From the NCBI RefSeq assembly GCF_006717095.1, contig NZ_VFQE01000001.1:930001-994000 (forward strand): a DNA stretch of 64,000 nucleotides. The letters run 5' to 3'. The translations under genes and the position numbers were made by a program. This DNA is from Blastococcus colisei (GTDB lineage: Bacteria; Actinomycetota; Actinomycetes; Mycobacteriales; Geodermatophilaceae). Numbering within the stretch: the stretch's first letter is position 1; each line of letters begins with the position of its first letter. The notes below the pieces were generated by a model. It did not search any database, was not told where the DNA came from, and saw nothing but the letters and a program-made list of their open reading frames with translations. Shown in pieces: positions 5,920 through 59,918 of this stretch.

Positions 5920-7038
5920 TAGAACCGCCGGGAGGGTGCCGAGCCACAACCTCCCGACGAGTGAGGAGCCGCCGGGCGTCCCGACGGGCTCCCAGCGGGT
6001 CGCCCATCCCTCGGCGTGCAGCTGCACGATCGCCGCGCCGAGCAGGGCGCCCAGGTTCAGCGCCGTCGTCAGGTTCGGGGTGTCGGTGAGGTGGACGTCG
6101 ATGACGCCGTCGCCCTCGCCCCCGTGGCGGAGGACCACCGGGAACTCCGGGAGGGCGGCGCTGGCGACGCGGAAGGCGGAGGCCGCCGCGGAGAGCTCGC
6201 CGGCCCGCGGGACCAGTTCGGCGCCCGGCTCCCGGGCGCGGACGAGGTCGCGCGCGCCGTAGGGGAAGAGGTCGTCGGCCGGCAGCCGCACGAGGGGCCG
6301 CGTGCCCGGATCGTCCTCGCCGGCCGGTGCCGGCGGGAGCCCGCGGACGACCGCGACGGGGACCCCGGCCAGCTTCCCCTTGACCAGGTCCGCGGCGGAG
6401 GCGAGCTCGTCGACGACCGCCACGCGGGTGGTCTCCAGACGGTTGCCCCAGGCGTCCACCGCTCCCCGGTGGTCGGTCAGCGCGGCGATCCCGGCCGAGC
6501 CGACCGCCACGTCCGTGAGCCCCTCGCGCCAGGTCCGGCCGAAGGTGTCGCTCACCACCACGGCGACCCCGACGCCGAGCAGCTCCCGGAGCCGGTCGCG
6601 CAGGCGGCGGGCGGAGGCGTCGGCGTCCTCCGGGAGGAGCACGAGGACGTCCTGGCGCACGTTCGAGGCGTCGATGCCCGCGGCGGCCACCACCCAGCCC
6701 TGACGGGTCTGGACGATCGCCAGGGGTCCGCGGCGGGCCACCACGCGCACCGCCTCGTCCTCGACCGCTTGCAGGCGGACCGCCTCGCGGTCGGCCCCGG
6801 GAGGCACGTGCAGGAGCCGGCCCTCCACCTTGGAGACCGCCTTGGAGGTGACGACGACGACGTCGCCGTCGGCCAGCCAGGGCGCCGCGCCCGCGATCGC
6901 CGCCGCCAGGTCGTCGTCCGGCGCGAACTCGGGTAGCCCGTGGACGGGCAGGATCGATACACCCGATGGAACGGCCCCGTCCCGGGCCCCACCCTGAGCC
7001 TGCGAAGGGTGGGCAGGACGGGGTCCTTCTTCAGCCAT
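5917..7038 (-). CDS. fbiB: Coenzyme F420-0:L-glutamate ligase
   Basis: Adds glutamate residues to F420-0. The CofE domain (about residues 30-270 of 373) has [66 protein letters not shown] and [19 protein letters not shown]. tuberculosis FbiB is about 448 residues with a C-terminal FMN nitroreductase-like domain. Here only about 100 divergent residues follow the ligase domain, so that second activity may be missing or altered. The ATG overlaps the cofD stop (ATGGCTGA), so the two are translationally coupled. Residues 2-24 are encoded by a dispersed palindromic repeat and look unlike the family. Confidence 0.92.
6973..7033 (-). repeat. Stop-anchored palindromic repeat, copy 1 (after cofD, inside the fbiB coding start)
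   Basis: On the minus strand it begins with the cofD TGA and reads TGAAGAAGGACCCCGTCC at the left end and GGGACGGGGCC at the right, with near-inverted ends and a GC-rich centre. It is read in frame as the N-terminus of fbiB. Related copies are listed below. Confidence 0.75.
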
Positions 7039-7990
7039 CGGCGGCATCGAGGGCGGCGCGGGCCAGCGCCGCGGTGGCCTCGGGGGAGGACATGAGCAGG
7101 GGCACCTGCCGGACGTCGACCCCCGGGACGTCCGCGGGGTCGTCGGGGGCCACCAGCCAGGCGTCGAGGAGGCCCTCGGCGGACCGGGCGCCGTAGTGCC
7201 GGCCGACGCCCTCGGCGCTGACCTCGATGCCCAGGGCGGGCAGGCAGCGGTCGGCCATCCCGCGGACGACGGCACCTCCGACGATGGGCGAGACGCCGAC
7301 GATGCGGGCCGGGGAGGCGAGCAGCGCCGCGCGCAGGCCGGGGACGCCGAGGATCGTGCCGATCGACACCACCGGGTTCGACGGCGCGAGCAGGACGGCG
7401 TCGGCCGTGGCGAAGGACTCGACGACACCCGGGGCCGGGCGGGCCACGTCGACCCCGATCTGGACGAAGGCCCGCGGGTCGAGGGCGGCGCGGTGCCGAA
7501 CCCACCACTCCTGGAAGTGGATCGCGCGCTGCCTGTCCGACTCCGGGTCGGGAACGACGACGTGCGTCTCGACCCGCTGGTCGCTCATCGGCAGCAGGGT
7601 CACACCCGGCTGCCAGCGGTCGGCGAGCGCCGCGGTCACCGCCGACAGCGGATAGCCGGCGTCGAGCATGCGGGTGCGGACGAGGTGGGTCGCCACGTCG
7701 CGGTCGCCCAGGCCGAACCAGTCGGGGTCGGCGCCGTAGGCGGCGAGCTCCTCCTTGACCGTCCAGCTCTCGCCGGCCCGGCCCCAGCCCCGCTCCTCGT
7801 CGATGCCTCCGCCGAGGGTGTACATCACGGTGTCGAGGTCCGGGCAGATCCGCAGGCCGTGCAATGTCACGTCGTCGCCGGTGTTGACGACGGCGGTGAT
7901 CTCCGCCTCCGGCCGGGCGGCGCGAACCCCACGCAGGAATCGAGCCCCTCCGGTCCCACCAGCCAGCACGACGATCTGCACGAAAGACAT
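7031..7990 (-). CDS. cofD: Phosphoenolpyruvyl-F420 precursor transferase (CofD/FbiA)
   Basis: Transfers the phospho-enolpyruvyl (or phospholactyl) unit to FO in F420 synthesis. The 319-residue protein has the family landmarks [65 protein letters not shown] and GVSPIVGG. Length is normal. It is the first gene of the cofD-fbiB operon, and its last codons overlap the fbiB start. F420 is the cofactor expected for the PPOX-type protein at 34.0 kb. Confidence 0.96.
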
Positions 7991-8106
7991 CGTGCCCGAT
8001 AGGCAGTTGTCGACTGTTCCACGGGCGTGTCGGGAGTTGGAACGAGATCTGACGAACGCCTGGTACAGGTGGGGCTGCTGTGGCGTGTCGCTTACACCGG
8101 GCGAAG

Positions 8107-8136
8107 TTGACGGGCAGGCAACGACACGCGTGTAAT
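8107..8136 (+). promoter_or_regulatory. Candidate whiB2 promoter
   Basis: TTGACG (8107-8112), an 18-nt spacer and TGTAAT (8131-8136) form the best sigma-A-like promoter in the 230-bp gap upstream of whiB. It would give a leader of about 80 nt ending in the purine-rich GAGAGGGGAC before the ATG. Confidence 0.4.
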
Positions 8137-8221
8137 TCCGGCGATGTCATCGAGTGCTTGGCGGTCCGGGAACGTCCCGGGGACCGCGCACCGGGACAAG
8201 AGCGAGAGGGGACGCAACGAC

Positions 8222-8581
8222 ATGGCCGAGGTTTCGTGGTTGAGCGACTACGTCAGTGGCAACGACCGGTCCGACCGGTTCGGGGCGGGCGCCGGCCAGG
8301 GCTCGAGCCAGGGCATGGGCCAGGGGATCGCCGGCCTGCTGGGCATCGGTGCCGAGGCCGACGCCCAGTCGTGGCAGGAGCAGGCGCTGTGCGCCGAGAC
8401 CGACCCCGAGGCGTTCTTCCCCGAGAAGGGCGGCTCCACCCGCGAGGCGAAGAAGATCTGCACCGGCTGCGAGGTCAAGGCGCAGTGCCTGGAGTACGCG
8501 CTCGCCAACGACGAGCGCTTCGGCATCTGGGGCGGCCTGTCCGAGCGTGAGCGCCGCCGGCTGCGTCGCCGCGCCGTCTGA
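8222..8581 (+). CDS. whiB2: WhiB-family iron-sulfur transcription factor (WhiB2/WhmD type)
   Basis: Actinobacteria-specific regulator of septation and cell division. Residues ALCAETDPEAFFPEKGG, then CTGC, then QCLEYALANDERFGIWGG give the four Cys that bind the [4Fe-4S] cluster and the GIWGG turn. The basic tail ERRRLRRRAV contacts DNA. The 119-residue protein is longer than M. tuberculosis WhiB2 (about 89) because of a Gly/Gln-rich N-terminal stretch. I chose the ATG at 8222, after a purine-rich site; an in-frame start at 8144 would add unrelated residues. Its position next to cofD and the Rv3259/Rv3258c-like genes matches mycobacteria. Confidence 0.93.
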   Translation: MAEVSWLSDYVSGNDRSDRFGAGAGQGSSQGMGQGIAGLLGIGAEADAQSWQEQALCAETDPEAFFPEKGGSTREAKKICTGCEVKAQCLEYALANDERFGIWGGLSERERRRLRRRAV

Positions 8582-8637
8582 AACCACTCCCTGCCCCACC
8601 GCTCGCGGCGGGAGCCGGCGGGGGCCAGGACGGGTCC
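8579..8637 (+). repeat. Possible divergent copy of the stop-anchored repeat (after whiB2)
   Basis: Starts at the whiB2 TGA, contains CCCCACCGCTCGC in the middle as in other copies, and ends GGACGGGTCC. The left end lacks the GAAGGACCCCGTCC sequence, so membership is uncertain. Confidence 0.35.
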
Positions 8638-8682
8638 GCCGCCCGAGAACGAGACAGCATGACCTGACCCCTCGGGTCATCC

Positions 8683-8715
8683 CACAGCCGCCGACGGTGC
8701 CCGTCGGCGGCTGTG
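8683..8715 (+). terminator. Strong hairpin after whiB2
   Basis: Perfect 15-nt arms (8683-8697 and 8701-8715, CACAGCCGCCGACGG) around a TGC loop. A smaller TGACCC/GGGTCA hairpin lies at 8665-8679. No U tract, as is usual in high-GC actinobacteria. Likely ends whiB2 transcription. Confidence 0.6.
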
Positions 8716-8728
8716 GTCGTATTCGGGG

Positions 8729-9538
8729 GTGTTCACCCGGGTCGCCGTCGGTCGTGCCGGGGTGGTCCGCGAGGTCCGTGCAGCGGGTCCGCTGATGGCC
8801 GCTCTTCGCGCCCCGGCGACCGCCCGCGGGCCCTGGCTCACCGCCGTGCTCAACGCGGGGGCCGCCCGCCGTGGCGGCGGCCGGCCGGTGGCGATCGTGG
8901 TCGAGCCGCACGCGCAGGGCCGTCCGGAGGCCGTGGCGTTCCTCACCCTGCGCCGCCGCGGCCTGGCGACACACGTCACGATGCTGGGCGACGGGGTGGG
9001 TCCGGTTCCCGGTGGTCGGCCGCCGGCACGGCTGCTCGCCCGCGACGGACGGGCCGCCGAGCTGCTCGCGGTGGGGATCTGCGACCTGCTGAACTCGCTG
9101 CGGGGTCCCCGGCGGCTGTCCCTGACGGGCCTGCCGCTGGGCGATCCGACGGCGCGGGCGCTGGCGGCGCAGCTGCCCGACGGGCTGATCGCCAACGCCC
9201 GCAGCAGTGGGACCGTCGACGGGCTCGACGGCGTGGGTGAGGTGGCGCGGAGCCAGGAGTCGCGCGACCTCGAGCGACTGCTGCCCGCGGTGCTGGCCCG
9301 CGAGCCGGACCGTCGGAGGCGGGACTTCCTGCGGGCCGCCGCCCGCCTGCACGCCGCGATCGGGCAGGTCGAGCTGGCCGTGCTGCCCGGCGGCGAGCAG
9401 CCGCGAGCCGCGCTGCTCACCCTCGTCGACGGCGCCGACCGCTGGCCCTGGTGGGGCTGGACCGACGTCGGGGGCCTCGACCCCGGCATGGGTGCGCCGG
9501 TGGTCGCGCTGACCGATCCAGCGCATGGCTGGCCCTGA
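8729..9538 (+). CDS. Conserved-looking hypothetical protein
   Basis: A 269-residue soluble protein I do not recognise. It has no membrane segment or signal peptide. The C-terminus (DRWPWWGWTDVGGLDPGM) is rich in Trp and Gly. It sits in whiB2 neighbour territory and ends 3 nt from the convergent gene that follows. The GTG start is only 14 nt past the whiB2 terminator, so a leaderless transcript or a later start (ATG near 8793) is possible. Clean codon-position GC bias supports it being real. Confidence 0.6.
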   Translation: MFTRVAVGRAGVVREVRAAGPLMAALRAPATARGPWLTAVLNAGAARRGGGRPVAIVVEPHAQGRPEAVAFLTLRRRGLATHVTMLGDGVGPVPGGRPPARLLARDGRAAELLAVGICDLLNSLRGPRRLSLTGLPLGDPTARALAAQLPDGLIANARSSGTVDGLDGVGEVARSQESRDLERLLPAVLAREPDRRRRDFLRAAARLHAAIGQVELAVLPGGEQPRAALLTLVDGADRWPWWGWTDVGGLDPGMGAPVVALTDPAHGWP

Positions 9539-9541
9539 GCG

Positions 9542-10462
9542 TCAGCCGCCGTAGGTGATCACGCTGGCCCCGTCGTCCCGCGTGCCCACGCGCTCGTCGC
9601 CGAGCTCGAGCAGGCCGGTGGCAGCCTCCCGCCCGTTCCCGGCCCGGCCGTCACGGGGAGCGGCGGTCACCGTGAACTCGTAGACCCGTCCGGTGGCGAC
9701 AGGGGGCGAGCCGAACGGCTCGCGCCAGGTCGGGAACGCACCCGAGACGCGGAGCGTGTCGCCGTCGGGTCGCACGGCGAGCTCCGGCGCGGACAGCTGG
9801 GCGTACTCGGTGACCGACCGGCTGCAGCCGGCCGCGACGGGGTCCTCGGGCGCCTCGTCGCGCAGGCAGTTGTACGTCTCGAGTTCCACCTCGGCGGTCG
9901 CCCGCCCGTCCGCCGCGGTCACCCGCACCGTCGGAGCGGCCACCGTGACGCCGACGGCGTGCCGTTCCAGGACGACGTTCTCGAACGCCAGCTCCGCCGA
10001 CACGGAACCGGGCGCCGGTCCGGGCGAGGTGCTCGCCCGCTCCGGCCGGGCGTCCCTGTCCCCGACGCCGGCGGGGTTCGGGGCCCGGGCGGTCGCGACC
10101 GCCGCGGCCGCACCGATCAGCAGCAGCGCGGTGACGGCCATCGCGACCAGCACGCCGGTGCTCCCGGACCTGTCCCGTGGTGGCACGGGCGTCGCCGGCG
10201 GGCGAGGCGCGGGGGCGCTGAGTGCCGGCCAGCCCGCGTCCGGGAGAGGTGGGGCGGGCACGGAGCCGGGTGGGGACTCCAGGAAGCCGGGCAGGTCGTC
10301 GACGACGGGACCGGGGGGTGGCGGTGCGGCCGCTCGGGTGCCGGGGCGGCGGCGCCGGGCCCTGACGGCGAGTGCGCCGAGCACCGGCAGGAGCATCCCC
10401 AGCACCAGGCCGAGCACGAGCCACGGCCCGGCGGTCACGGGGATCTCCATCGCGGTCAGCAT
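9542..10462 (-). CDS. Hypothetical membrane-anchored protein
   Basis: A 306-residue protein with two membrane segments: WLVLGLVLGMLLPVLGAL near residues 14-31 and VLVAMAVTALLLIGAAAAVA near residue 105. A Pro/Ala-rich loop lies between them. The C-terminal half (about 150 residues, Cys in YNCLRDEAPEDPVAAGC) would be outside and looks like a beta-rich domain. No family recognised. An ATG at 10450 is an alternative start that fits the membrane segment equally well. Convergent with the preceding hypothetical gene. Confidence 0.6.
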   Translation of the reverse strand: MLTAMEIPVTAGPWLVLGLVLGMLLPVLGALAVRARRRRPGTRAAAPPPPGPVVDDLPGFLESPPGSVPAPPLPDAGWPALSAPAPRPPATPVPPRDRSGSTGVLVAMAVTALLLIGAAAAVATARAPNPAGVGDRDARPERASTSPGPAPGSVSAELAFENVVLERHAVGVTVAAPTVRVTAADGRATAEVELETYNCLRDEAPEDPVAAGCSRSVTEYAQLSAPELAVRPDGDTLRVSGAFPTWREPFGSPPVATGRVYEFTVTAAPRDGRAGNGREAATGLLELGDERVGTRDDGASVITYGG

Positions 10463-10510
10463 CCCAGGGCGTCCCGCGCGGGCTCGCCGGTGACCGCCGG
10501 GCCGCCCTGC

Positions 10511-10969
10511 TCAGCCGGTGGGGTCGATCTCCTCGGGGTCCCGGCCCAGCAGGACCGCGACCTGGTCGACGACCACGTCGCGCACGAGGTCGGCGAGGTC
10601 GTCGCGGTCATGCGCCCGGATCTCCAGCGGTCGCCGGTAGACGACGATCCGCGGCGGCACCTCGCGGCCGTTGTCGCGGTGGGCGGGCAGCACCCGGGCC
10701 AGCGGCACGGAGGCGTCGTCCAGGACGTCGGCGTCCAGGACGACGTCGTCGGGACTGGTGTGCTCGACCCAGGGCACGTCCTCGACGGCGAACTCGACGC
10801 CGGCCAGCTCACGCTCCCAGCGGCGCTCGATGTCCTCCACGGCGTCGAGGACCAGGTCGTCGAACTGCTCGGCGCGGCTGCGGGCCAGCGGGACCTCGCT
10901 GGGCACCAGGCGGCCGCGCAGTCCGCGACCGTGGCGGTCGCGGCGGGAGCGGTTCGGGGGTCGGCTCAT
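10511..10969 (-). CDS. Metallopeptidase-like (zincin-fold) protein lacking its active site, Rv3259-like
   Basis: A 152-residue protein resembling the small zincin-like family (Rv3259 position in M. tuberculosis): LARSRAEQFDDLVLDAVEDIE, then IVVYRRPLE, then a final helix. Where active members have HExxH, this protein reads VVVDQVAVLLG, so the zinc ligands and catalytic Glu are absent. A non-enzymatic role is likely. It is divergent from the DUF3499 gene, as in mycobacteria. Family assignment is from memory of the pattern. Confidence 0.7.
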   Translation of the reverse strand: MSRPPNRSRRDRHGRGLRGRLVPSEVPLARSRAEQFDDLVLDAVEDIERRWERELAGVEFAVEDVPWVEHTSPDDVVLDADVLDDASVPLARVLPAHRDNGREVPPRIVVYRRPLEIRAHDRDDLADLVRDVVVDQVAVLLGRDPEEIDPTG

Positions 10970-11163
10970 GACGGGTCGAAGGGTACGGCCACCGGCGGGG
11001 CTGCGGCCGAGACACGGGTGCGGGAAGGGCCAGGACCGGTGTCGGTGCCTGCGGGGTCATCGTGCAGGATGGGGCGCGGCGTCCACCGTCGACCAGATTT
11101 CCGGTGCGCCTGCTCCCATCGACCGCCGAGCGCGATTACTGTGCCGAGCGTGAGGAACCGGTG

Positions 11164-11514
11164 GTGAGGCAGTCACGTCGCTGCTCGCGCAGCGGCTGCG
11201 CGCAACCGGCAGCGGCGACTCTGACCTACGTGTACGCGGAGTCGACGGCCGTTGTCGGTCCGTTGGCGACGTTCTCCGAGCCGCACAGCTACGACCTGTG
11301 CGAATTCCACGCCGAGCGCCTGACGGTTCCGCGCGGCTGGGAGGTCGTCCGCCACGAGATCGACCTCGACGACGCCGGGCCGACCGGTGACGACCTGCTC
11401 GCCCTGGCTGACGCCGTCCGCGAGGCGGCGCGCCCCGAGCCGCCGCGAAACCCCGCCGACGACGGCAGTGGCACCCGTCGTGGACACCTCCGGGTCTTGC
11501 CTGACCTGACCTGA
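11164..11514 (+). CDS. DUF3499 family protein (Rv3258c-like)
   Basis: A small conserved actinobacterial protein of unknown function, 116 residues from the chosen start. It begins VRQSRRCSRSGCAQPAAATL, with Cys pairs (RRCSRSGC, DLCEFHAERL) suggesting a zinc site, and continues WEVVRHE. The start at GTG 11164 is set by GAGGAA 6 nt upstream. The open frame reaches back to 11062, but that extension has no family character. Always near whiB2 and manB in actinobacteria; here an HNH gene has been placed between it and manB. Confidence 0.8.
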   Translation: MRQSRRCSRSGCAQPAAATLTYVYAESTAVVGPLATFSEPHSYDLCEFHAERLTVPRGWEVVRHEIDLDDAGPTGDDLLALADAVREAARPEPPRNPADDGSGTRRGHLRVLPDLT

Positions 11515-13908: not shown

Positions 13909-13916
13909 ATGTTCGA
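13901..13916. promoter_or_regulatory. LexA SOS box over the HNH gene start
   Basis: TCGAACACATGTTCGA matches the actinobacterial SOS consensus TCGAAC-N4-GTTCGA at all 12 fixed positions. It overlaps the GTG start codon (13906-13908), and on the minus strand the TATCAT box (13916-13921) abuts it, so bound LexA would block initiation. Confidence 0.8.
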
Positions 13917-14051
13917 TGATAGCGGACGTGCGGGGGCCTCACCAGCGGTTTCGGAGGAGCGTTGCTCCGGGTGCGGCGACCGGGCTGGTCGTCCGGCAGC
14001 CGGTCCCAGGTCCGCGGCGGTGCCCCCGAGCCGTGGCCCGCCGGCCGCCGT

Positions 14052-17009: not shown

Positions 17010-17954
17010 GTGGCGGGTGGACTGGTAGCCCTGCTGGACGACGTGGCGGTGCTGGCGCGCGCCGCCGCCGCCTCGATCGACGACATCGGGGCCGCCGCAG
17101 GGCGAGCCAGCATGAAGGCGGCCGGCGTCGTCGTCGACGACACCGCGGTCACGCCGCAGTACGTGCACGGCCTCAACGCCGAGCGCGAGCTGCCGATCAT
17201 CCGGAAGATCGCCTTCGGCTCGCTGCGCAACAAGCTCCTGATCATCCTGCCCGCGATCCTGCTGCTCAGCCAGTTCCTGCCCTGGCTGCTCACGCCGATC
17301 CTGATGATCGGCGGTGCCTACCTCTGCTACGAGGGGGCGGAGAAGATCTGGCACCGGATCAGCGGCCACGCCGAGGCCCACGCCACGGTGGAGGACGCGC
17401 TCCCGGACGAGAAGACCATCGTGTCGGGGGCCGTGCGCACCGACTTCATCCTGTCGGCCGAGATCATGGTCATCAGCCTCAACGAGGTGGCGAGCGAGGC
17501 CTTCCTCTCGCGGGCGGCCATCCTGGTCGTCGTCGCCATCGGGATCACGGTGCTGGTCTACGGCGTCGTCGGCCTGATCGTGAAGATGGACGACGTCGGG
17601 CTGGCTCTTTCCCAGCGCTCCGGGAAGGGCATCGCCCGCTTCGGCCGCGGACTGGTGAAGGCCATGCCGCGGTTGCTCAGCGCCCTCACCGTCATCGGGA
17701 CCGTGGCGATGCTGTGGGTGGGTGGGCACATCATCCTGCTGGGCACCGACGAACTGGGCTTCCACCCGCTGTACGAGTTCGTGCACCACCTCGAGGAGGC
17801 CGCGCACGATGCCACCGGCGCGCTGGGCGGGGTGGTCGGCTGGATCGTCAACACGCTGGGCAGCGCGATCCTCGGGCTGGCCGTCGGGGCGCTGGTCGTG
17901 CTGGTCATGAACCTGACGTTCCACCGCAAGAAGAAGACGGCCGAGGCCCACTGA
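17010..17954 (+). CDS. DUF808 (YedI-like) inner-membrane protein
   Basis: A 314-residue integral membrane protein. It begins MAGGLVALLDDVAVLARAAA, then DDIGAAAGRASMKAAGVVVDD, the DUF808 signature, followed by several hydrophobic segments (LLIILPAILLLSQFLPWLL, AAILVVVAIGITVLVYGVVG, ALTVIGTVAMLWVGGHIILL, ILGLAVGALVVLVMNLTF). Function is unknown. The GTG start leaves a 160-bp gap to the previous gene. The stop codon starts a palindromic repeat. Confidence 0.9.
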   Translation: MAGGLVALLDDVAVLARAAAASIDDIGAAAGRASMKAAGVVVDDTAVTPQYVHGLNAERELPIIRKIAFGSLRNKLLIILPAILLLSQFLPWLLTPILMIGGAYLCYEGAEKIWHRISGHAEAHATVEDALPDEKTIVSGAVRTDFILSAEIMVISLNEVASEAFLSRAAILVVVAIGITVLVYGVVGLIVKMDDVGLALSQRSGKGIARFGRGLVKAMPRLLSALTVIGTVAMLWVGGHIILLGTDELGFHPLYEFVHHLEEAAHDATGALGGVVGWIVNTLGSAILGLAVGALVVLVMNLTFHRKKKTAEAH

Positions 17955-18080
17955 AGAAGTCGAAGGACCCCGTCCTCCTCACCCTTCGCAAGATCGGGAC
18001 GAGCCTCGGGGCGGGGCCTTACCCCACCGCTCGCAGCTCGCGGCGGTGCCATGGGAAGGGCCGGGCCTCGGGACGGGGCC
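17952..18080 (+). repeat. Stop-anchored palindromic repeat, copy 2 (after the DUF808 gene, composite)
   Basis: The first unit (17952-18018) starts with the TGA stop, has GAAGGACCCCGTCCTCCTC and ends GGGGCGGGGCC. A second partial unit (about 18019-18080) has a core CCCCACCGCTCGCAGCTCG and ends CTCGGGACGGGGCC. Two copies or one expanded copy side by side. Confidence 0.75.
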
Positions 18081-25809: not shown

Positions 25810-27294
<1,485 letters not shown>

Positions 27295-27300
27295 GGTCTT

Positions 27301-27364
27301 CAGGCATAGGAACCTTTACCTGCGTCCCGGGCCGTCGGGGAGGGGGTAAAGGTTCCTATGCCTG
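27301..27364. repeat. Perfect 20-bp inverted repeat between ahcY and mtrA
   Basis: The left arm CAGGCATAGGAACCTTTACC (27301-27320) is exactly complementary to 27345-27364, with a 24-nt GC-rich spacer. A further GAGGTC/GACCTC pair (27293-27298, 27366-27371) extends the stem across a small mismatch. Arms are about 50 percent GC in a genome above 70 percent. It starts 6 nt after the ahcY stop. It may be a bidirectional terminator, a miniature mobile element or a regulator site upstream of mtrA. Confidence 0.8.
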
Positions 27365-27445
27365 CGACCTCGCGGGGAGTCGACCGCCGCCGCGCCGACA
27401 TCTCACCCGGACGGGTAGGCCACCTTTGCCGCTGAGCAGCGCAGA

Positions 27446-29936: not shown

Positions 29937-31657
29937 CCGGGCTCCGGGGTGCCGTCGTGCTGATCGTGCTGCTCGCGCTGTCGGCCTGCTCCACGGTGCC
30001 GATGACGTCGTCGACCGTGCAGATCACCCAGGCACCGAGCCGGCCCGCCGAGGTCGTCGGCATCGAGCCGCTTCCGCCGGAACCGGGGGCCACGCCCGAG
30101 GAGGTCGTCCGGTCGTTCATCGACGCGGCGGCGAGCGCCCGGCAGGGCCACCCCGTGGCCGTGGAGCACCTCGCCCCCGAGGCGGCCCGGACCTGGGACG
30201 ACGAGGCCGGTATCACCGTCATCAGCCCGGGCTACGCGACCGTCACCACCGCGGCCGGCGCGGTGGAGGTGACGGCGAACCCGGTGGGAACGATCGACGA
30301 CCGCGGGGTCTTCACCGTCACGACCGGGACCACCTTCACCCGCCAGTTCACCCTCGAGCAGGTGGAGGGCGAGTGGCGCATCACCGACCCTCCCGACGGT
30401 CTGATCATCCTCGAGCCGGACTTCCAGCGGCTCTACGAGGAGTCACCCGCCTACTTCCTCGACCCGACCTACCAGCGCCTGGTGCCCGACCCGCGCTACG
30501 CCATCTCGGGTGACGCGTTGCCCACGGTCGTGGTCGAGCGGCTGATCGCCGGACCCTCCGCCCCGCTGGCCGCCGGGGTGCGCAACGCGTTGGAGGGCGC
30601 CATGTTGCGCAGCGCGGTCACCATCGAGGGCCAGACCGCCGTCGTCGATCTCACCGGGCTCCCCGCCGAGCCGTCGCCGCTGCTCGGCCAGCTCTCCGCG
30701 CAGCTGGTGTGGACGCTGACCCGGCTCGGCAACGTCACCATCCGCTCGGTCGAGGTGCGCATCGACGGAGAGCCGGTCGCCATCGCCGAGGTGCCCGACG
30801 AGCAGACGCCCGAGCACTGGAGCGGCTTCGACCCCGATGCGGTCCCCCTGGAGACGGTCGGCCACTACCTGACCGATGGCGGGCTCCACACGGTCACCAC
30901 CGGCGAGCCGGTCCCCGGCCCCGCCGGTACCGGCGAGTACGGCCTCACCGACGCCGCGGTCTCGATCGACGCCGCCACCGGGCAGCCGACTTTCCTCGTC
31001 GGCGTCCGGCCCGAGGCCGGCGGGGTCACGCTGCTCGCCGGTCCCTACGACGGCGCGCTGGCCCCTGTGCTCAGCGGCTCCCGGTGGAGTTCCCCCTCCG
31101 TGGCGATCACCCGCACGGAGGTCTGGGTGGTGCGGGACGGCACCTCGGTCGTGCGGGTCCAGGCCGGCGGCCCGCCGCAGGCGGTGGCCACGCCGACCCT
31201 CCCCGGGCTGGGGGTGACCGAGGTGCTCGAGCTCTCGCCCGACGGGACGCGCGCGGCGCTGGTCATCGACGGGTCGGGCGACCGCGGCCTCTACATCGGG
31301 ACCGTGGTCCGTGCCGACGACGGCAGTGTCGCGCTGCGGGACTTCCGCACGATCGCGCCGCAGCTGTCGGGGGTCGTCGACGTCGCCTGGCAGGACAGCG
31401 GAACCCTGATGGTGCTCGCCGGTGACGCGCGGGACGGCCGGATCGTGCCCTACGAGGTCGGCGTCGACGGCTGGGGCCTCGCCGAGATCTCCCAGTCGGG
31501 CCTCCCCGACCAGCCCCGGTCGGTCGCCGCCGTTCCCACCCGGCCGCCGCTGGTGGACGCGGGAGGCACGATCTGGCAGCTCACGGGCGGCACCTGGTCC
31601 ACCCTGCTGCGCGGGCAGGAGCCCCTCCCGGGGACGGCGCCGTTCTACCCCCTCTGA
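29933..31657 (+). CDS. lpqB: Lipoprotein LpqB
   Basis: Lipoprotein that interacts with MtrB and modulates MtrA phosphorylation in mycobacteria. The 574-residue precursor starts with a signal peptide and lipobox LALSAC, giving lipidated Cys19. A sporulation/germination GerMN-like domain follows (about 190-320), including ALPTVVVERLIAGPS and VVDLTGLPAEPS. A C-terminal beta-propeller covers the rest. The GTG start overlaps the mtrB stop, so synthesis is coupled. Stop codon marks a dispersed repeat. Confidence 0.94.
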   Translation: MTGLRGAVVLIVLLALSACSTVPMTSSTVQITQAPSRPAEVVGIEPLPPEPGATPEEVVRSFIDAAASARQGHPVAVEHLAPEAARTWDDEAGITVISPGYATVTTAAGAVEVTANPVGTIDDRGVFTVTTGTTFTRQFTLEQVEGEWRITDPPDGLIILEPDFQRLYEESPAYFLDPTYQRLVPDPRYAISGDALPTVVVERLIAGPSAPLAAGVRNALEGAMLRSAVTIEGQTAVVDLTGLPAEPSPLLGQLSAQLVWTLTRLGNVTIRSVEVRIDGEPVAIAEVPDEQTPEHWSGFDPDAVPLETVGHYLTDGGLHTVTTGEPVPGPAGTGEYGLTDAAVSIDAATGQPTFLVGVRPEAGGVTLLAGPYDGALAPVLSGSRWSSPSVAITRTEVWVVRDGTSVVRVQAGGPPQAVATPTLPGLGVTEVLELSPDGTRAALVIDGSGDRGLYIGTVVRADDGSVALRDFRTIAPQLSGVVDVAWQDSGTLMVLAGDARDGRIVPYEVGVDGWGLAEISQSGLPDQPRSVAAVPTRPPLVDAGGTIWQLTGGTWSTLLRGQEPLPGTAPFYPL

Positions 31658-31748
31658 GAAACAGCCCCGTCTCGGGCCCGGCATCCACAGGAGAAGGACC
31701 CGTCCTCCTCAGGCCTCGCAGGCTCGGCCCGAGCCTCGGGACGGGACC
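31655..31748 (+). repeat. Stop-anchored palindromic repeat, copy 3 (after lpqB)
   Basis: Begins at the lpqB TGA with TGAGAAACAGCCCCGTC, then a unit GAGAAGGACCCGTCCTCCTC to CTCGGGACGGGACC. The right end is 1 nt before the TAGGGT box of the next gene. The left unit looks truncated, as if one copy was inserted in another. Confidence 0.7.
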
Positions 31749-31749
31749 A

Positions 31750-31755
31750 TAGGGT
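31750..31755 (+). promoter_or_regulatory. -10 box (TAGGGT), leaderless spacing
   Basis: TAGGGT is exactly 6 nt from the ATG at 31762 of the ComF-like gene. Confidence 0.5.
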
Positions 31756-33914: not shown

Positions 33915-33974
33915 GGCCCCGTCCCGGGTCCCACCGCGAGCTCGCGAGTGGTGGGGAGGACGGGGTGTTTCTCA
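33915..33974 (-). repeat. Stop-anchored palindromic repeat, copy 4 (between PPOX and GNAT genes)
   Basis: On the minus strand it starts with the PPOX-gene TGA (TGAGAAACACCCCGTCC) and ends GGGACGGGGCC. The centre CGCGAGCTCGCG is a perfect palindrome, making this the most symmetric copy and able to fold into one long hairpin. Confidence 0.8.
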
Positions 33975-52572: not shown

Positions 52573-52596
52573 GCCGGGACCGTCGGACCCGCTCGT

Positions 52597-52602
52597 TACC
52601 GT
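52597..52602 (+). promoter_or_regulatory. -10 box (TACCGT) of the RecB-like gene
   Basis: TACCGT lies 7 nt before the ATG at 52610. It overlaps the alternative GTG at 52601, which makes the ATG the likely start. Confidence 0.5.
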
Positions 52603-52609
52603 GAGCGCC

Positions 52610-53464
52610 ATGGGGACGAGCGCGCAGATGGAGATGCCGGGCATGCCGCGCCGGCTGTTCTCCGCGACCCCCAGCAAGCTCGCGTCCTTCGCCGACTGCC
52701 CCCGCCGCTACCGGTACGCCTACGTCGACCGGCCGACCCCGCCCAAGGGGCCGGCGTGGGCGCACAACACGGTCGGTGCGGCCGTGCACGCCGCGCTCCG
52801 CTCGTGGTGGGACCTCCCGGTGCAGAAGCGGACGACAGGGGCGGCGCGGCAGCTGTTGTACGCGGCGTGGTCGCAGAACGGGTTCCGGGACGCCGAGCAG
52901 GCCGACCGGTGGCGCGCGCGGGCCGCGGGCTGGATGACCGACTACGTGCCGACGCTGGACCCGACCGACGAGCCCGTGGGCAACGAGCGCACGGTCGGTG
53001 CCACCACCGGGCGGCTGGCGCTGTCCGGCCGGGTCGACCGCATCGACCAGCGCGGCGACGAACTGGTCATCGTCGACTACAAGACGGGGCGGGTGCCCTC
53101 CACCGACGACGAGGCCCGGGGGTCACCGGCACTGGCGGCCTACGTGCTCGGGGTGCGTCGCACGCTGCGGCGGCCGTGCAACCGGGTGGAGCTGCACCAC
53201 CTGCCCAGCGGCACGGTGGCCGCCTTCGAGCACACCGAGCGGTCGTTGGCCAACCACGTCCGGCGCGCGGAGGACATCGCCGTCGACATCACCGCGGCGA
53301 CCGAGCAGATGGCGGCCGGCGAGGATCCGGACGCCGCCTTCCCGACGGTCCCGGGCCAGCAATGCAGCTGGTGCGACTTCCGGCCCAGCTGCCCGACCGG
53401 GCAGGCGGCCGTCCCGCCGCGCGAGACGTGGAGCTTCCTCGCCGAGGACGAGAAGGGCACCTGA
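52610..53464 (+). CDS. RecB-family PD-(D/E)XK nuclease with [4Fe-4S] cluster
   Basis: A 284-residue single-domain exonuclease of the Cas4/AddB/RecB type. SATPSKLASFADCPRRYRYA holds the first Cys, near residue 29. LSGRVDRIDQRGDELVIVDYK gives the catalytic Asp and Lys. CSWCDFRPSC near residues 248-257 gives the other three Cys, so the iron-sulfur clamp is complete. Such stand-alone proteins are common in actinobacteria and presumably act in DNA end processing. No helicase or CRISPR genes nearby. Confidence 0.9.
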   Translation: MGTSAQMEMPGMPRRLFSATPSKLASFADCPRRYRYAYVDRPTPPKGPAWAHNTVGAAVHAALRSWWDLPVQKRTTGAARQLLYAAWSQNGFRDAEQADRWRARAAGWMTDYVPTLDPTDEPVGNERTVGATTGRLALSGRVDRIDQRGDELVIVDYKTGRVPSTDDEARGSPALAAYVLGVRRTLRRPCNRVELHHLPSGTVAAFEHTERSLANHVRRAEDIAVDITAATEQMAAGEDPDAAFPTVPGQQCSWCDFRPSCPTGQAAVPPRETWSFLAEDEKGT

Positions 53465-53470
53465 GGGAAC

Positions 53471-53532
53471 GGCCGCGCTGCAGGAGTCCGCGCCGAGCGT
53501 GCGAGGTGCGGGGGCAGCAGGGTCCTCTTTCA
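53471..53532 (-). repeat. Stop-anchored palindromic repeat, copy 5 (after the DUF2236 gene)
   Basis: On the minus strand it starts at the TGA (TGAAAGAGGACCCTGCTGCC) and runs through CCTCGCACGCTCGGCGCGGA to GCGGCCGTTCC. It closely matches copy 6 in the middle (CTCGCACGCTCGGCGCGG). The convergent RecB-like gene stops 7 nt beyond its far end. Confidence 0.7.
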
Positions 53533-55319: not shown

Positions 55320-55362
55320 GGCCCCCAGTGAACCCCGCTGCGGCCGGGCGTGCAGCAGCGGG

Positions 55363-56508
55363 TCAGCGGTAGCCGACGACGCCGTCGTCCGACCGGAGGA
55401 CGACGGCCGGGCCGATCGCCGATGCCGTTCCTCCGGGGGGCAGATCGGCGATCGCGGAGCGGGACAGCTCGGCGCCCGTGGCCACGTCCCGGAACGAGAA
55501 CCCGTCCCGGTCCGGCAGCACGAGCGAGCCCGGCCGGGCGGCGTCCTTGGCGTCCGCCGGCACGGGCAGTCCGACCGCGGGGGCCTCCCACAGGACCGCG
55601 CCCGACGAGGTGTCCCGCACGGTCACCGTGTCGTCGACCCGCACCAGCGAGACCGGGCCGACGGTCACCTGCTCGACGTCCGTCGTGCCCGCTGGCACCG
55701 GCAGCCGCGCCAGCTCCGCGCCGTCCGGGCCGCTCAGCATCCGGACCTCGTCACCGACGAGCACCGTCACCGCCCCGTCGGCGCCCAGGAGCCGGACGGC
55801 GTCGTCCTCGGCCGCAGGCAGGGCGCGGTTCCAGTGCTCCGAGCCGGCGAAGCCGTCGAGGAGGCGCACCTGCACGTCGGAACTGCTTTCGCAGCGCTGC
55901 AGCACGACGACGCCGGTGCTCCCGGTGTCCGCGTCGACGAACCGGCAATCCTCCGGGGCGGCCTGGCGCCAGCGGATGCCGCTGCCGGTCGGGTCGAGCG
56001 TGAGGACCCCGGTGGGGTTGACCGCCAGCACGATGGCGCTGGTCGAGTCCAGGACGGCGTCCCCGGCGAGGTCGAGGCTCCGGGTCCATTCCCGCACGCC
56101 GGTGCCCGCGTCCAGGGCGACGGCCTCGTCGCAGCGGTCCGCGGTGGCGAACACGGCCACGGCCACGCCGTCGGTGACGGTCAGGCCGCACATCCGGGCG
56201 TTGGACCGCGTGTAGTGCCACGCCTCCTCGCCGGTGAGCGGGTCCAGCGCACGGATCCCGTGCTCGGATCCGACGACGACCCGGCCCTCGGACACGATCC
56301 TCTCAGGCAATGGGTTGCCGTCGGCCGACCACGCCTCGGAGACGGCACCGGCCGGCGTCCCGGAGGGGACGTCGGCCGGCGGCGCGGTGGTGCTCTCCGT
56401 GGCGGCCGCGTCCGAGCCCCGCCACAGCAGGGCGGCGATCAGGACCAGTGCCACGGTGCCCGCCGTCCACACCCACACCCGCAACGGCGGCCGGCGGAAC
56501 GGAGGCAT
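55363..56508 (-). CDS. PQQ-binding-like beta-propeller protein, membrane-anchored
   Basis: A 381-residue protein with an N-terminal membrane anchor (VWVWTAGTVALVLIAALLW) and an outer beta-propeller of PQQ-like repeats (VGSEHGIRALDPLTGEEAWH, VALDAGTGVREWTRSL, VLTLDPTGSGIRWRQ, VRDTSSGAVLWEAP). No enzymatic residues recognised; such proteins often act as scaffolds or sensors at the envelope. The ATG at 56508 (or GTG 56511) lies just after the rhlE stop; the open frame upstream is antisense-like shadow within rhlE. Two Cys pairs may form disulfides. Confidence 0.82.
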   Translation of the reverse strand: MPPFRRPPLRVWVWTAGTVALVLIAALLWRGSDAAATESTTAPPADVPSGTPAGAVSEAWSADGNPLPERIVSEGRVVVGSEHGIRALDPLTGEEAWHYTRSNARMCGLTVTDGVAVAVFATADRCDEAVALDAGTGVREWTRSLDLAGDAVLDSTSAIVLAVNPTGVLTLDPTGSGIRWRQAAPEDCRFVDADTGSTGVVVLQRCESSSDVQVRLLDGFAGSEHWNRALPAAEDDAVRLLGADGAVTVLVGDEVRMLSGPDGAELARLPVPAGTTDVEQVTVGPVSLVRVDDTVTVRDTSSGAVLWEAPAVGLPVPADAKDAARPGSLVLPDRDGFSFRDVATGAELSRSAIADLPPGGTASAIGPAVVLRSDDGVVGYR

Positions 56509-56513
56509 CACGT

Positions 56514-58313
56514 TCAGGCGGCGGACTCGGAGCCGCCGCCGCCGCGGTTGGCGCCGCCGCGGCGACGACGGCGGCGCGGCTTGCTCGCGGCGCCCTCGGT
56601 GGGCGTGGACTCCGGTGACGCGGCAGGGCTCGACTCGCCCTCGGCCGCGGGCGCGCCGGTGCGGCGGGTGCGGCGACGGGGGCGGCTCTTGCCCTCGCCC
56701 TGCTCGCCGTCGGCCGACCGGCCCGGACGCTCGCCCTGACGGCCGCCGGAGGGACCGCGCTGGCCGGCCCGCCCACCTGAATCCCCGCGGCCGCCGGAGG
56801 TCGGCCGGTTGCGCTTGCCGGTCTCGCCGAGGTCCTCGAGGGTCTCGGCGTCCAGTCCCTCGCGGGTGCGCTGCGAGCGGGGCAGCCGGCCCTTCGCGCC
56901 CTCGGGCACGTCCAGGTCGGTGTAGACCCAGGGGGAGGTGGAGTAGGTCTCCGGCGGGTCGGCGAAGTCGAGGTCGAGCGCCTTGTTGATCAGCTGCCAG
57001 CGGGGGATGTCGTCCCAGTCGACCAGCGTGACCGCGACACCGGTGCTGCCGGCCCGGCCGGTGCGGCCGATCCGGTGCACGTAGGTCTTCTCGTCCTCGG
57101 GGCACTGGTAGTTCACGACGTGGCTGACGCCGGTCACGTCGATGCCGCGGGCGGCGACGTCGGTGGCCACCAGCACGTCGACCTTGCCGCTGCGGAAGGC
57201 GCGCAGCGCCTGCTCGCGGGCGCCCTGGCCGAGGTCGCCGTGCACGGCGGCGGCGGCGAACCCGCGGTCGACCAGCTCGTCGGCGACCTTCTGCGCGGTG
57301 CGCTTGGTGCGGCAGAAGACCATGACCAGGCCGCGGTCCCGCGACTGCAGCACGCGGGAGAGCAGCTCGGGCTTGTCGAGGTTGTGCGCCCGGTAGATGA
57401 ACTGGGTGGTCTGCGGGACCGTCGAGCCCTCGTCGTTGCCGTGCGCCCGGATGTGCGTGGGCTGGGTCATGAACGAGCGGGACAGGGTCACGATCGGGCC
57501 GGGCATCGTCGCGGAGAACAGCATCGTCTGCCGCTTGTCCGGAACCATCGCGAGGATCCGCTCGATGTCGGGCAGGAAGCCCAGGTCGAGCATCTCGTCG
57601 GCCTCGTCGAGGACGAGCACCTTCACCTTGCCCAGGATCAGGTCGCCCCGCTGGGCCAGGTCGAGCAGCCGGCCGGGCGTGCCGACGACGATCTCGACAC
57701 CCTTCTGCAGCGACTCGACCTGCGGCTCGAACGCGCGCCCGCCGTAGATGGCCTGCACCCGGATGCCGCGCTTGGCGCCGGCGGCGCCGAGGTCGCGGGC
57801 GACCTGCACGCACAGCTCACGGGTGGGGACGACGACCAGCGCCTGCGGGACGCCGTCACCGCCCTCGGCCGGCGGGCTGATGCGCTGCAGCATCGGGACG
57901 CCGAAGCCGAGGGTCTTGCCGGTGCCGGTGCGCGCCTGGCCGATCAGGTCGTTGCCGGCCAGCGCCAGGGGGAGAGTCAGCTCCTGGATGGCGAAGGTGC
58001 GGGTGATCCCGACCTCGGTCAGCGCGGCGACGATGTCGGGGTGCACGTCGAAGTCGCTGAACAGCGGGCTGTCGCCGGCGACGGGGGCGCCGCCGAGCTC
58101 TTCGACCTGCGACTCGAGCTCCTCGGGGGCGGGCGCGCCGGTCTCGGCGTGCTCGAGGGCGACCGCTTCGGTGGCCACGGGGGTTTCGGGCGTGGGGGTG
58201 TTCTCGATGGAGGTCAGTGCTCTCGCCTCTGGTCTGCCGGGGGAGAGGTTCCGTCGCGCTCGTCGCGGCGGTCCTGTCCCGGTGGGTTGTCGCGGGATCA
58301 GTTCCAGCGCCAA
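56514..58313 (-). CDS. rhlE: DEAD-box ATP-dependent RNA helicase (RhlE-like)
   Basis: Remodels RNA, probably in ribosome assembly and cold adaptation. All motifs are present: FAIQELTLPLAL (Q), ARTGTGKT (I), PTRELCV (Ia), TPGRLLDLAQ (Ib), DEADEML (II), SAT (III), VFCRTKRTAQKVADEL (IV), ATDVAARGIDV (V) and HRIGRTGRAG (VI). A long Arg/Gly/Ser-rich tail (about 480-599) binds RNA. The start is uncertain: TTG 58313 gives 599 residues, while a CTG near 58217 or a GTG near 58180 would remove an N-terminal stretch that does not look conserved. The core begins near residue 85. Confidence 0.92.
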   Translation of the reverse strand: MALELIPRQPTGTGPPRRARRNLSPGRPEARALTSIENTPTPETPVATEAVALEHAETGAPAPEELESQVEELGGAPVAGDSPLFSDFDVHPDIVAALTEVGITRTFAIQELTLPLALAGNDLIGQARTGTGKTLGFGVPMLQRISPPAEGGDGVPQALVVVPTRELCVQVARDLGAAGAKRGIRVQAIYGGRAFEPQVESLQKGVEIVVGTPGRLLDLAQRGDLILGKVKVLVLDEADEMLDLGFLPDIERILAMVPDKRQTMLFSATMPGPIVTLSRSFMTQPTHIRAHGNDEGSTVPQTTQFIYRAHNLDKPELLSRVLQSRDRGLVMVFCRTKRTAQKVADELVDRGFAAAAVHGDLGQGAREQALRAFRSGKVDVLVATDVAARGIDVTGVSHVVNYQCPEDEKTYVHRIGRTGRAGSTGVAVTLVDWDDIPRWQLINKALDLDFADPPETYSTSPWVYTDLDVPEGAKGRLPRSQRTREGLDAETLEDLGETGKRNRPTSGGRGDSGGRAGQRGPSGGRQGERPGRSADGEQGEGKSRPRRRTRRTGAPAAEGESSPAASPESTPTEGAASKPRRRRRRGGANRGGGGSESAA

Positions 58314-58533
58314 CGCAGCCAGCAGAACCGGGCGTTCCGGAGATCAGGCCCGGGAGACAGCCCGAGAGGGCGTCGTCCAGCGGTCGTCAGCGCACAGATA
58401 CACAGCGCACCCGGAGGTGCACCGATTCCCATGGTAGCGCGGCCACCGGTTAGCCTCTGCGCGCCGCGCTGTCCCAGGTGACCTGCGCCACCTGTTCCGA
58501 CCGGCGGCCCCTCGTGGATTCCAGGAGATGTGT

Positions 58534-59187
58534 GTGACGACCTCGGTCGACAGCAGTGCCGTCGTGGACCTGCTGGGCGCGCTCGCCTACGCCGAGCTCA
58601 CCGCCTTCGACCGGCTGGCCGAGGACGCCCGGCTCGCGCCCACGCTCACCGGGCGGGCCGCGCTGGCGAGGATGGCGGCGGCCGAGATCGGGCACCACTG
58701 CCGGCTGGTGGAACGGCTGGAGCAGTTGGGTGCCGACCCGTCGCAGGCCATGGCGTCGTTCGTCCCTGCCCTCGACGCGTTCCACGAGAGCACCCGGCCC
58801 AGCACCTGGTTGGAGGGGCTGGTCAAGGCCTACGTCGGCGACGGGCTGGCCAGCGACTTCTACCGCGAGATCGCCGCCTTCCTGCCCGACCCGGACCGCG
58901 AGCTGGTGCTGGAGGTCCTCGCCGACACCGGCCACGCCGACTTCGCCGTCCGCGAGGTGCGCGCGGCCATCAAGGCCGACCGCAAGGTTTCCGGCCGGCT
59001 GTCCCTCTGGGGACGGCGGCTCGTGGGTGAGGCGATGAGCCAGTCGCAGGCGGTCATCGCCGAGCACGACGGGCTGGCCGAGCTGATCATCGCCGGCACG
59101 GGTGACATCTCCGGCGTCGCGCGGCTGATCGAGCGCATCACCAGCGCCCACACCCAGCGGATGAAGGCACTGGGGCTCAACCCGTGA
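58534..59187 (+). CDS. Ferritin-like fold protein (Rv3210c / MiaE-like)
   Basis: A 217-residue all-helical protein: LLGALAYAELTAFDRLAEDA, then AAAEIGHHCRLVERLEQLG and a later VLEVLADTGHADFAVREVRA. The Glu and ExxH-like pairs resemble the diiron site of ferritin-like tRNA-hydroxylase relatives. In M. tuberculosis the equivalent gene Rv3210c also adjoins rhlE. Function unknown. GTG 58534 is set by AGGAG with a 6-nt gap; an ATG at 58528 abuts that site. It overlaps the next gene by GTGA. Confidence 0.75.
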   Translation: MTTSVDSSAVVDLLGALAYAELTAFDRLAEDARLAPTLTGRAALARMAAAEIGHHCRLVERLEQLGADPSQAMASFVPALDAFHESTRPSTWLEGLVKAYVGDGLASDFYREIAAFLPDPDRELVLEVLADTGHADFAVREVRAAIKADRKVSGRLSLWGRRLVGEAMSQSQAVIAEHDGLAELIIAGTGDISGVARLIERITSAHTQRMKALGLNP

Positions 59188-59918
59188 AGGACCCCGATGC
59201 CCCCCACGCCTCGCACGCTCGGCGCGGGCCCCTGCACCGGGGCCGTCGGGCGCCGCACCTAGTCGTCGTCGGGGCCGGAACGGGCATCTCCCAGGCCACC
59301 GGCCGCCGGCTCGGCGCCGACGGCTACGCCGTCGGGCTGGTCGCCCGCAGGGAGGGTCCGCTGGCCGAGATCGGCAGCGCGCTGCGCGAGGACGGCGTCC
59401 GGACGGAGTGGGCGACGGCGGACGCCGGGGACCCACGATCGCTGACCGCGGCCGTCGAGTCGCTCACGGCGGCCCTCGGGCCGGTCGGTGTCCTGCTCTA
59501 CAACGTGTCCGTGGGCCGGGCGGCCGCCGTGCCCGATCTGGCGCCGGAGGACCTGCTGGGTGATCTGGCGGCGGGGGCGGTGGGCCTGCAGACGGCGGTC
59601 CGCGCCGTCCTGCCCGGGATGCGGGAGCGCGGAACGGGCACCGTCCTGGTCACCGGCGGCGGGTCGGCGGACCGGCCCATCCCCTCGATGGCGAGCCTGG
59701 GCGTCCAGAAGGCGGCGCTGCGTGCTCTGGTGGACGTGCAGGCCAAGGCGCTGGCGCCCGAGGGCATCCACGTGGCCACGGTGACGGTCCGCGGGCTGGT
59801 CGGGGAGGACGAGCAGATCCACCCCGACCGGGTGGCCGCTGTCTACGCCGAACTGGTGGCCGAGACCGCAGGCCCGCAGGAGACCTGGCGGACCGTCGTC
59901 GAGTTGAAGGCCCACTGA
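59184..59918 (+). CDS. SDR-fold protein lacking the catalytic Tyr
   Basis: A 244-residue Rossmann protein. HLVVVGAGTGISQATGRRLG is the cofactor loop, then VARREGPL, VLLYNVSVGRA and TGGGSADRP. Where active SDRs have YxxxK this reads LGVQK, so the Tyr is Leu. The Lys remains. Enzyme activity is doubtful; it may bind a nucleotide only. The GTG start overlaps the upstream stop, and the first 20 residues (KDPDAPHASHARRGPLHRGR) are encoded by a dispersed palindromic repeat rather than family sequence. Confidence 0.85.
   Translation: MKDPDAPHASHARRGPLHRGRRAPHLVVVGAGTGISQATGRRLGADGYAVGLVARREGPLAEIGSALREDGVRTEWATADAGDPRSLTAAVESLTAALGPVGVLLYNVSVGRAAAVPDLAPEDLLGDLAAGAVGLQTAVRAVLPGMRERGTGTVLVTGGGSADRPIPSMASLGVQKAALRALVDVQAKALAPEGIHVATVTVRGLVGEDEQIHPDRVAAVYAELVAETAGPQETWRTVVELKAH
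59185..59244 (+). repeat. Stop-anchored palindromic repeat, copy 6 (start of the SDR-like gene)
   Basis: Starts at the TGA of the ferritin-like gene (TGAAGGACCCCGATGCC), with CTCGCACGCTCGGCGCGGG in the middle and CACCGGGGCC at the right end. It is fully translated as the N-terminus of the next protein. Confidence 0.75.

What the first reader, a model, noticed from the sequence alone, without database searches (positions are those of the whole stretch)
6973..59244. A dispersed palindromic repeat family whose left end is the TGA stop codon of the upstream gene
Six clear copies (6973-7033 -, 17952-18080 +, 31655-31748 +, 33915-33974 -, 53471-53532 -, 59185-59244 +) and one weak (8579-8637 +) all begin exactly at a TGA stop and run in the sense of the gene that ends there. 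The consensus left end is about TGAAGAAGGACCCCGTCC, the middle has CTCGC and GCTCG palindromic parts, and the right end is about CTCGGGACGGGGCC, so the ends are near-inverted. Repeats that merely sit in gaps would not share the stop codon as an edge. The element may target or recreate stop codons, act as a terminator, or use its AGAAGGA (Shine-Dalgarno-like) just after the stop for reinitiation.
Basis: partly seen in the sequence, partly recalled or inferred. Interest (0 to 1): 0.82.

Follow-up and report, generated by a model that had tools for sequence, protein, structure and literature searches.

The report
Palindromic repeats packed against stop codons
Bacteria of the family Geodermatophilaceae carry many copies of a short foldable DNA repeat, most of which sit within a few bases of the stop codon of a gene; it resembles known bacterial palindromic repeats, but how it gets there is unknown.

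Summary
The family is real and larger than the window. A covariance model finds 6 strong copies in the window and about 90 in the 5.16 Mb genome (genus inferred: Blastococcus). In a 57-genome sample of the bacterial family 47 have copies; 16 genomes of other families of the order have none. Stems vary but covary; a bulged A, an A.C mismatch and the loop CTCGCANGCTCG are conserved. The stop-codon link holds: of 120 copies picked by loop sequence alone, 86 have the stop of a same-sense gene ending 0-6 nt before the stem. The stop belongs to the gene: element-free orthologues stop at the same codon in 54 of 62 comparisons. One gene end (ahcY) carries an element in 36 of 49 genomes looked at, sometimes with remnants stacked behind it. 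No T-run follows, another terminator-like hairpin lies further on, and the antisense strand folds better, so a terminator role is unlikely. No RAYT transposase was found in 16 own-genus genomes, no integron integrase reached its cut-off in 25, and reverse transcriptase does not track the repeat. Best reading: a new REP-like, probably mobile, non-autonomous palindrome family kept against stop codons; the insertion mechanism is not shown.

The parts
6967..7033 (-). family copy; gene stop TGA at 7031-7033, stem starts 4 nt later, tail begins GTTCCA
   Evidence: R1 86.9 bits; gene 7031-7981 minus
17958..18024 (+). family copy after stop TGA 17952-17954 (stem about 10 nt after the stop)
   Evidence: R1 54.6 bits; orthologous gene ends in G010, G011, G012 carry differing elements
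18025..18080 (+). part of a second unit (loop and right arm) joined to the previous copy
   Evidence: partial R1 match 18025-18045; rest by reading
31655..31688 (+). gene stop TGA plus a stretch resembling a left end; not covered by the family model
   Evidence: sequence reading
31689..31754 (+). family copy not at the stop; orthologous copy in G010
   Evidence: R1 60.2 bits
33909..33974 (-). family copy, stop TGA 33972-33974
   Evidence: R1 67.1 bits
53465..53532 (-). family copy, stop TGA 53530-53532; the plus-strand gene 52601-53464 ends right at its other side
   Evidence: R1 62.9 bits
59185..59250 (+). family copy, stop TGA 59185-59187, stem starts 1 nt after; orthologous copy in G011, empty in G010, G012, G015
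   Evidence: R1 71.0 bits
8579..8637 (+). possible decayed copy after stop TGA 8579-8581
   Evidence: 14.6 bits, E 0.07; full element at the orthologous stop in G012
27292..27294 (+). stop codon of ahcY (gene 25810-27294): no element here, but a hot spot in relatives

Best explanation
A REP-like family of short, non-autonomous palindromic elements of Geodermatophilaceae, about 57-60 bp of double hairpin (stem GG-A-CC... / ...GGCC with a bulged A, inner stem with an A.C mismatch, loop CTCGCANGCTCG), with a 16-nt tail (about GTTCCAGCACGTCACC) in a subclass. SHOWN: most copies sit directly against stop codons of existing genes, mostly in sense, most often 4 nt from stop to stem; the stop belongs to the host gene; the same stop is occupied by differing elements in different species; structure is kept while sequence varies. 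INFERRED: it is a mobile element recognised as a DNA hairpin (probably the antisense strand) by an unidentified transposase or recombinase that joins its left end just after a stop codon; new arrivals enter next to the stop and older units decay behind them; it lasts because this site harms neither the gene nor its terminator.
For: Family and structure. Copies in 47 of 57 sampled genomes of the family (9 of 12 genera; at most 90 candidates scored per genome) and 0 of 16 genomes of other families of the order. Stop link: 86 of 120 copies picked without the left end, stop-to-stem gap 0-6 nt, 53 of them TGA with 4 nt (6 of the 120 had no recognisable stem start and got an estimated one). Null: in the window 57 gene stops against 174 non-coding stop triplets on both strands, so insertion at any tolerated stop triplet predicts about 25%, not 72%. 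Same gene, many species: ahcY stop has a sense element in 33 of 49 genomes, an inverted one in 3, half a one in 1, none in 12 (31 of the 33 by model match at the stop, the other 2 and the half by eye). Stacks and nested copies, by eye. DNA-level hint: antisense strand folds better in 222 of 240 copies with RNA parameters and in 191 against 25 with DNA parameters; 300 random 58-mers show no bias with DNA parameters.
Against: No mobilising enzyme found, and no polymorphic insertion between near-identical strains seen: filled/empty pairs had flanks at most 92% alike, the closest ahcY pair 97%. No target-site duplication established; the right boundary is uncertain because intergenic DNA diverges fast. 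The stop-to-stem gap depends on stop type (mostly 4 for TGA, 2 or 5 for TAG, 0 for two TAA), which 'insert just after the stop' does not explain. 34 of 120 loop-picked copies are not at a same-sense stop; in G000 9 of the 34 such copies abut a divergent gene start instead. Targeting against retention is not settled: by divergence from the nearest other copy the quartiles at stops are 14, 14, 10 and 20 of 23 (halves 28 and 30 of 46), so the most diverged copies are the most often at stops, as retention, or the model's left-end bias, would give. Folding 90 nt after 185 element-free gene ends also starts the strongest hairpin within 5 nt of the stop in 110, against 54 of 61 element ends, so a stop-proximal fold by itself is not special in this GC-rich DNA.
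Confidence: 0.55

Rival explanations
1. A transcription terminator or mRNA 3'-end protector: selection keeps an RNA hairpin right behind the stop codon.
For: Sense orientation behind genes; stems kept by changes on both sides; 19 of 35 copies whose next gene faces them end within -8..+9 nt of that gene's stop, measured from the end of the model match; the most diverged quartile is most often at stops (20 of 23).
Against: No T-run in any of 189 copies. At ahcY another terminator-like hairpin lies downstream in genomes with and without the element (by eye). A.C mismatches outnumber G.U pairs (84 against 51 after leaving out the constant A.C column, subtraction by hand, alignments fitted to the model), the reverse of RNA-level selection in sense. 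11 of 41 co-directional next genes start within 30 nt. A complete congener, G015, has none.
Confidence: 0.17
2. A translation-level regulator: like E. coli REPs close to stop codons (recalled: Liang, Rudd and Deutscher 2015; not found), the hairpin stalls terminating ribosomes and tunes the upstream gene.
For: Stem starts 0-6 nt after the stop, inside the ribosome footprint (recalled); strong folding (mean -36 kcal/mol for the strongest hairpin in the 90 nt after 61 stops).
Against: Turnover between element, other hairpin and nothing at the same stop among congeners; antisense folds better than sense. It may be a side effect rather than the reason.
Confidence: 0.15
3. A short sequence target, (C)T-purine-purine: the enzyme inserts after any such triplet and purifying selection leaves copies at stops and between genes.
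For: TGA, TAG and TAA are all used; several copies away from stops keep TAG/TAA at the left end; C precedes TGA in 84 of 92 copies with TGA at -7. C before TGA at stops: 43 of 52 and 40 of 45 in two sets, against 273 of 418 background stops (P 0.012 and 0.0012).
Against: Expected share at gene stops about 25%, observed 72%. Against open-ended background genes (206 of 277) the C preference shrinks to P 0.22 and 0.04.
Confidence: 0.25
4. An integron-type attC site (structured, behind stop codons, bulged bases, antisense strand active).
For: Position behind stops, conserved bulge, better-folding antisense strand.
Against: Integron integrase: all 25 genomes have weak matches but 0 of 25 reach the cut-off; 13 of 14 control genomes also give weak matches. 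No GTTRRRY/RYYYAAC boxes (recalled consensus; by reading); copies are scattered, not in an array.
Confidence: 0.03

Closest known systems
REP elements, GTAG and CGTC super-families (Di Nocera et al. 2013, PMC3733652: abstract, the genome-distribution section and the first of two parts of the discussion read)
   Same: Dispersed palindromes behind genes; conv-REPs mostly within 20 bp of both ORF ends; GTAG termini often provide the TAG stop; uneven between relatives; CGTC class lacks a known transposase
   Different: 57-60 bp double hairpin, not 20-40 bp; GTAG in the 12 nt before the stem in 15 of 210 copies and CGTC in 15 of 210; no RAYT in the own genus; mismatches do not favour the sense RNA, while that paper uses G.T pairing as support for RNA roles
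MIRU of mycobacteria (Supply et al. 1997, recalled; passages in PMC12548453 and PMC2734929 seen)
   Same: Short, apparently mobile repeats of actinobacteria at gene boundaries, thought to insert with little harm
   Different: Recalled DTGA target excludes C, but C precedes TGA in 84 of 92 copies; per PMC12548453 MIRUs insert at start codons and carry an ORF coupled to the next gene; no such ORF noticed here by reading
attC sites of integrons (recalled)
   Same: Hairpin with bulges behind stop codons, antisense strand folds
   Different: No integron integrase over the cut-off, no attC boxes, not in arrays

Membership tests
REP (GTAG/CGTC) | palindrome of 20-40 bp with unpaired GTAG or CGTC tag at one end | tested here: not met
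   57-60 bp; GTAG 15 of 210, CGTC 15 of 210 anchored copies
REP (GTAG/CGTC) | dispersed, extragenic, close to 3' ends of ORFs | tested here: met
   58 of 92 own-genome copies and 86 of 120 loop-picked copies at same-sense stops
REP with RAYT | Y1 tyrosine transposase (PF01797) in the genome | tested here: not met
   0 of 16 own-genus genomes; 1 of 9 genomes of other families; other genera of the family not searched
MIRU | insertion into DTGA with a coupled small ORF | tested here: not met
   C before TGA in 84 of 92; ORF only looked for by eye
integron attC | integron integrase in the genome | tested here: not met
   0 of 25 over cut-off, weak matches in 25 of 25
intrinsic terminator | T-run after the hairpin | tested here: not met
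   0 of 189 with 6 or more T in 10 nt
MITE | target-site duplication | tested here: inconclusive
   none apparent in junctions, but intergenic DNA too diverged
known structured RNA (Rfam 15) | match at gathering score | tested here: not met
   0 matches in the window

The most novel reading that the evidence does not exclude
An element whose insertion is guided by translation termination itself, or by an unknown hairpin-binding enzyme reading the stop triplet in context: all three stop codons are used, mostly the real stop of the gene, repeatedly at the same gene and with polarity (newest unit next to the stop).
Probability: 0.12. Interest if true: 0.9.

Novelty: new variant of a known kind. 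Interest (0 to 1): 0.55.

Why it matters
It gives a clean case, in dozens of sequenced species, for asking whether palindromic repeats reach gene ends by targeted insertion or by selection. Its conserved bulge and mismatch, tight spacing to the stop and stacked remnants are testable traces of an unknown mobilising machinery.

Tried and rejected
RAYT/IS200 transposase as mobiliser: PF01797 in 0 of 16 own-genus genomes. Integron integrase: 0 of 25 over cut-off. Reverse transcriptase PF00078: found in 28 of 57 genomes and absent from copy-rich ones such as G002, G008, G010, G016, G019. Plasmids and phages (one copy as query) and viral contigs (loop pattern): no match. Rfam: none. A fold-based control for stop-proximal hairpins was not discriminating (110 of 185 element-free ends, 54 of 61 element ends). 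Interrupting DNA in L339 resembles a sequencing adaptor (recalled) at a contig end and was dropped as artefact. tRNA genes as alternative neighbours: of 59 loci scanned 5 hold tRNA genes, only L078 and L085 within 100 nt of the copy. A search for near-identical strain pairs found none. Paper searches: 39, 54, 66 and 71 gave 0 papers; one gave 5 papers, of which one was opened (PMC9686282, passages only: the term refers to CRISPR there); two gave 1 paper each, 47 three, 67 five; a passage sought in PMC5009743 was not in the held text.

Rows dropped: 21 of 92 own-genome and 4 of 35 relative copies had no recognisable stem start and are not in the left-end logo; 30 of 240 likewise. The 240 copies are 92 of G000, 35 of relatives and 113 of the 122 matches (9 weak or end-lying ones not typed in). 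One search used 80 of the 119 loci; the remaining 39 were added only.
Full report
What is there. The window lies in a 5.16 Mb, 4-contig genome; the window is 74% GC. Its congener G011 has a contig of 1,347,517 bases, the length of NZ_OCNK01000001.1 of Blastococcus haudaquaticus, so the genus is inferred to be Blastococcus. A covariance model from 12 copies (R1) finds six strong copies in the window and 105 matches at E up to 1 in the genome, 90 of them at E up to 1.3e-4 (only 150 of 13,026 first-look candidates were scored, so this may be a lower bound).

Structure. In the 12-copy MAFFT alignment 87.3% of cells pair, 11 of 19 pairs have changes on both sides and 0 of 500 shuffles reach the covariation score. 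Conserved are a bulged A in the outer stem, the loop CTCGCANGCTCG and an A.C mismatch in the inner stem (56 of 92 and 101 of 114 copies with letters at that column). Read on the other strand that mismatch is a G.T wobble. The antisense strand folds better in 222 of 240 copies with RNA parameters (sense better in 14) and in 191 against 25 with DNA parameters; 300 random 58-mers from the window give 127 against 142 with DNA parameters. Copies are related, so the P-values overstate independence. Outside the constant column, A.C mismatches (84) exceed G.U pairs (51); sense-RNA selection predicts the opposite. Di Nocera et al. used G.T pairing as support for RNA roles of REPs (PMC3733652, discussion part 1).

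The stop codon. Gene calls are my own crude codon-score caller. In the own genome 58 of 92 copies have a same-sense stop at the left end, but the model was itself built from copies with TGA there. So I took the copies found in named genomes by a loop-only pattern: 119 stretches, 120 distinct copies. Of these 86 are at a same-sense stop, 31 elsewhere (several nested, by eye) and 3 inside a called gene (first 81 copies: 61, 17 and 3; last 39: 25, 14 and 0). The stop-to-stem gap is 0-6 nt in all 86: TGA with 4 nt 53, TGA with other gaps 20, TAG with 2 nt 7 and 5 nt 4, TAA with 0 nt 2. The gap depends on the stop type, which I cannot explain.

Whose stop is it? Comparing gene ends in syntenic stretches of five congeners (own genome included; G015 only as target), the stop is at the same codon in 54 of 62 filled-to-empty comparisons, 17 of 17 filled-to-filled and 481 of 559 empty-to-empty. 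The stop belongs to the host gene. Stop type differs in 15 of 54 against 68 of 481 comparisons; the same sites recur in these counts, so this is only a hint that part of the stop can be replaced. At ahcY 7 of 33 genomes with a sense element have TAG or TAA, 0 of the 16 others.

A hot spot. I looked at the ahcY stop in 49 distinct genomes: the 30 best-matching of 57 and 19 more of the 25 with a match, so one genus is over-represented. A sense element is there in 33, an inverted element whose right end meets the stop in 3 (L326, L345, L348), half an element in 1 (L339, by eye) and none in 12, one of which (L295) has remnant-like sequence. In 31 of the 33 the model match starts at the stop; in L332 and L338 it covers a later or inner unit and the outer one was judged by eye. 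Several carry stacks, one full unit next to the stop followed by right halves and tails of others (L305/L340, L330, L341, L342; elsewhere L212, L086, L059, L056, by eye). A separate terminator-like hairpin lies further downstream with or without the element (by eye). Nested copies inside the loop occur elsewhere (L057, L070).

Spread. R1 hits in 22 of 41 genomes (own included), all in the own family, none in 16 genomes of other families; in a wider sample 47 of 57 genomes and 9 of 12 genera (strict filters). G015, same genus and 100% complete, has none. No hits in plasmids, phages or viral contigs.

Mechanism. Insertion at any tolerated stop triplet would give about 25% at gene stops (57 of 231 in the window), against 72% seen. 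Whether this is targeting or retention is open: sorted by identity to the nearest other copy, the share at stops is 14, 14, 10 and 20 of 23 per quartile (28 and 30 of 46 per half). On re-checking I found that I had first reported only the halves; because the most diverged quartile speaks for retention, or for the model's left-end bias, I lowered confidence in the best explanation from 0.60 to 0.55 and raised the terminator rival from 0.15 to 0.17. No very young copy was seen (best neighbour identity 0.96). The mobilising enzyme is unknown: PF01797 in 0 of 16 own-genus genomes, integron integrase 0 of 25 over cut-off, reverse transcriptase absent from several copy-rich genomes. Of the 34 own-genome copies not at a same-sense stop, 9 have the left end 9-15 nt from a divergent gene's start; in 7 of these 9 I see a TANNNT box at the border (by eye).

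Novelty. REPs near stops, and GTAG REPs that supply TAG stops, are in print (PMC3733652). For this bacterial family two searches of open-licence papers named it or its type genus: 5 papers, one opened; none; the other seven searches were general. Subscription papers were not searchable. I file it as REP-like, not as a member of the GTAG/CGTC super-families.

Noticed in passing
L026, L044, L059, L069, L073, L079, L102 (left flanks): Copies away from stops whose left end abuts what looks like the -10 box (TANNNT) of a divergent, possibly leaderless gene.
   Followed up: partly
L228, L232, L241, L245, L185: Genes that lack a stop at the left end and appear to read through the element, ending 76-94 nt after the stem start; L241 has TGC and L232 TGG where the stop would be.
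   Followed up: no
L339 about 2030-2222: Non-family DNA at a contig end inside an element; resembles a sequencing adaptor, so probably an assembly artefact.
   Followed up: partly
window 27295-27400: Behind ahcY a long hairpin (AGGCATAGGAACCTTTACC...GGTAAAGGTTCCTATGCCT) that also occurs in variant form in L292 and L293; possibly another small repeat or terminator.
   Followed up: no
L227 (SPQJ01000029.1): Record labelled Bacillus sp. AZ43 (unverified) carries the family; the label is probably wrong.
   Followed up: no
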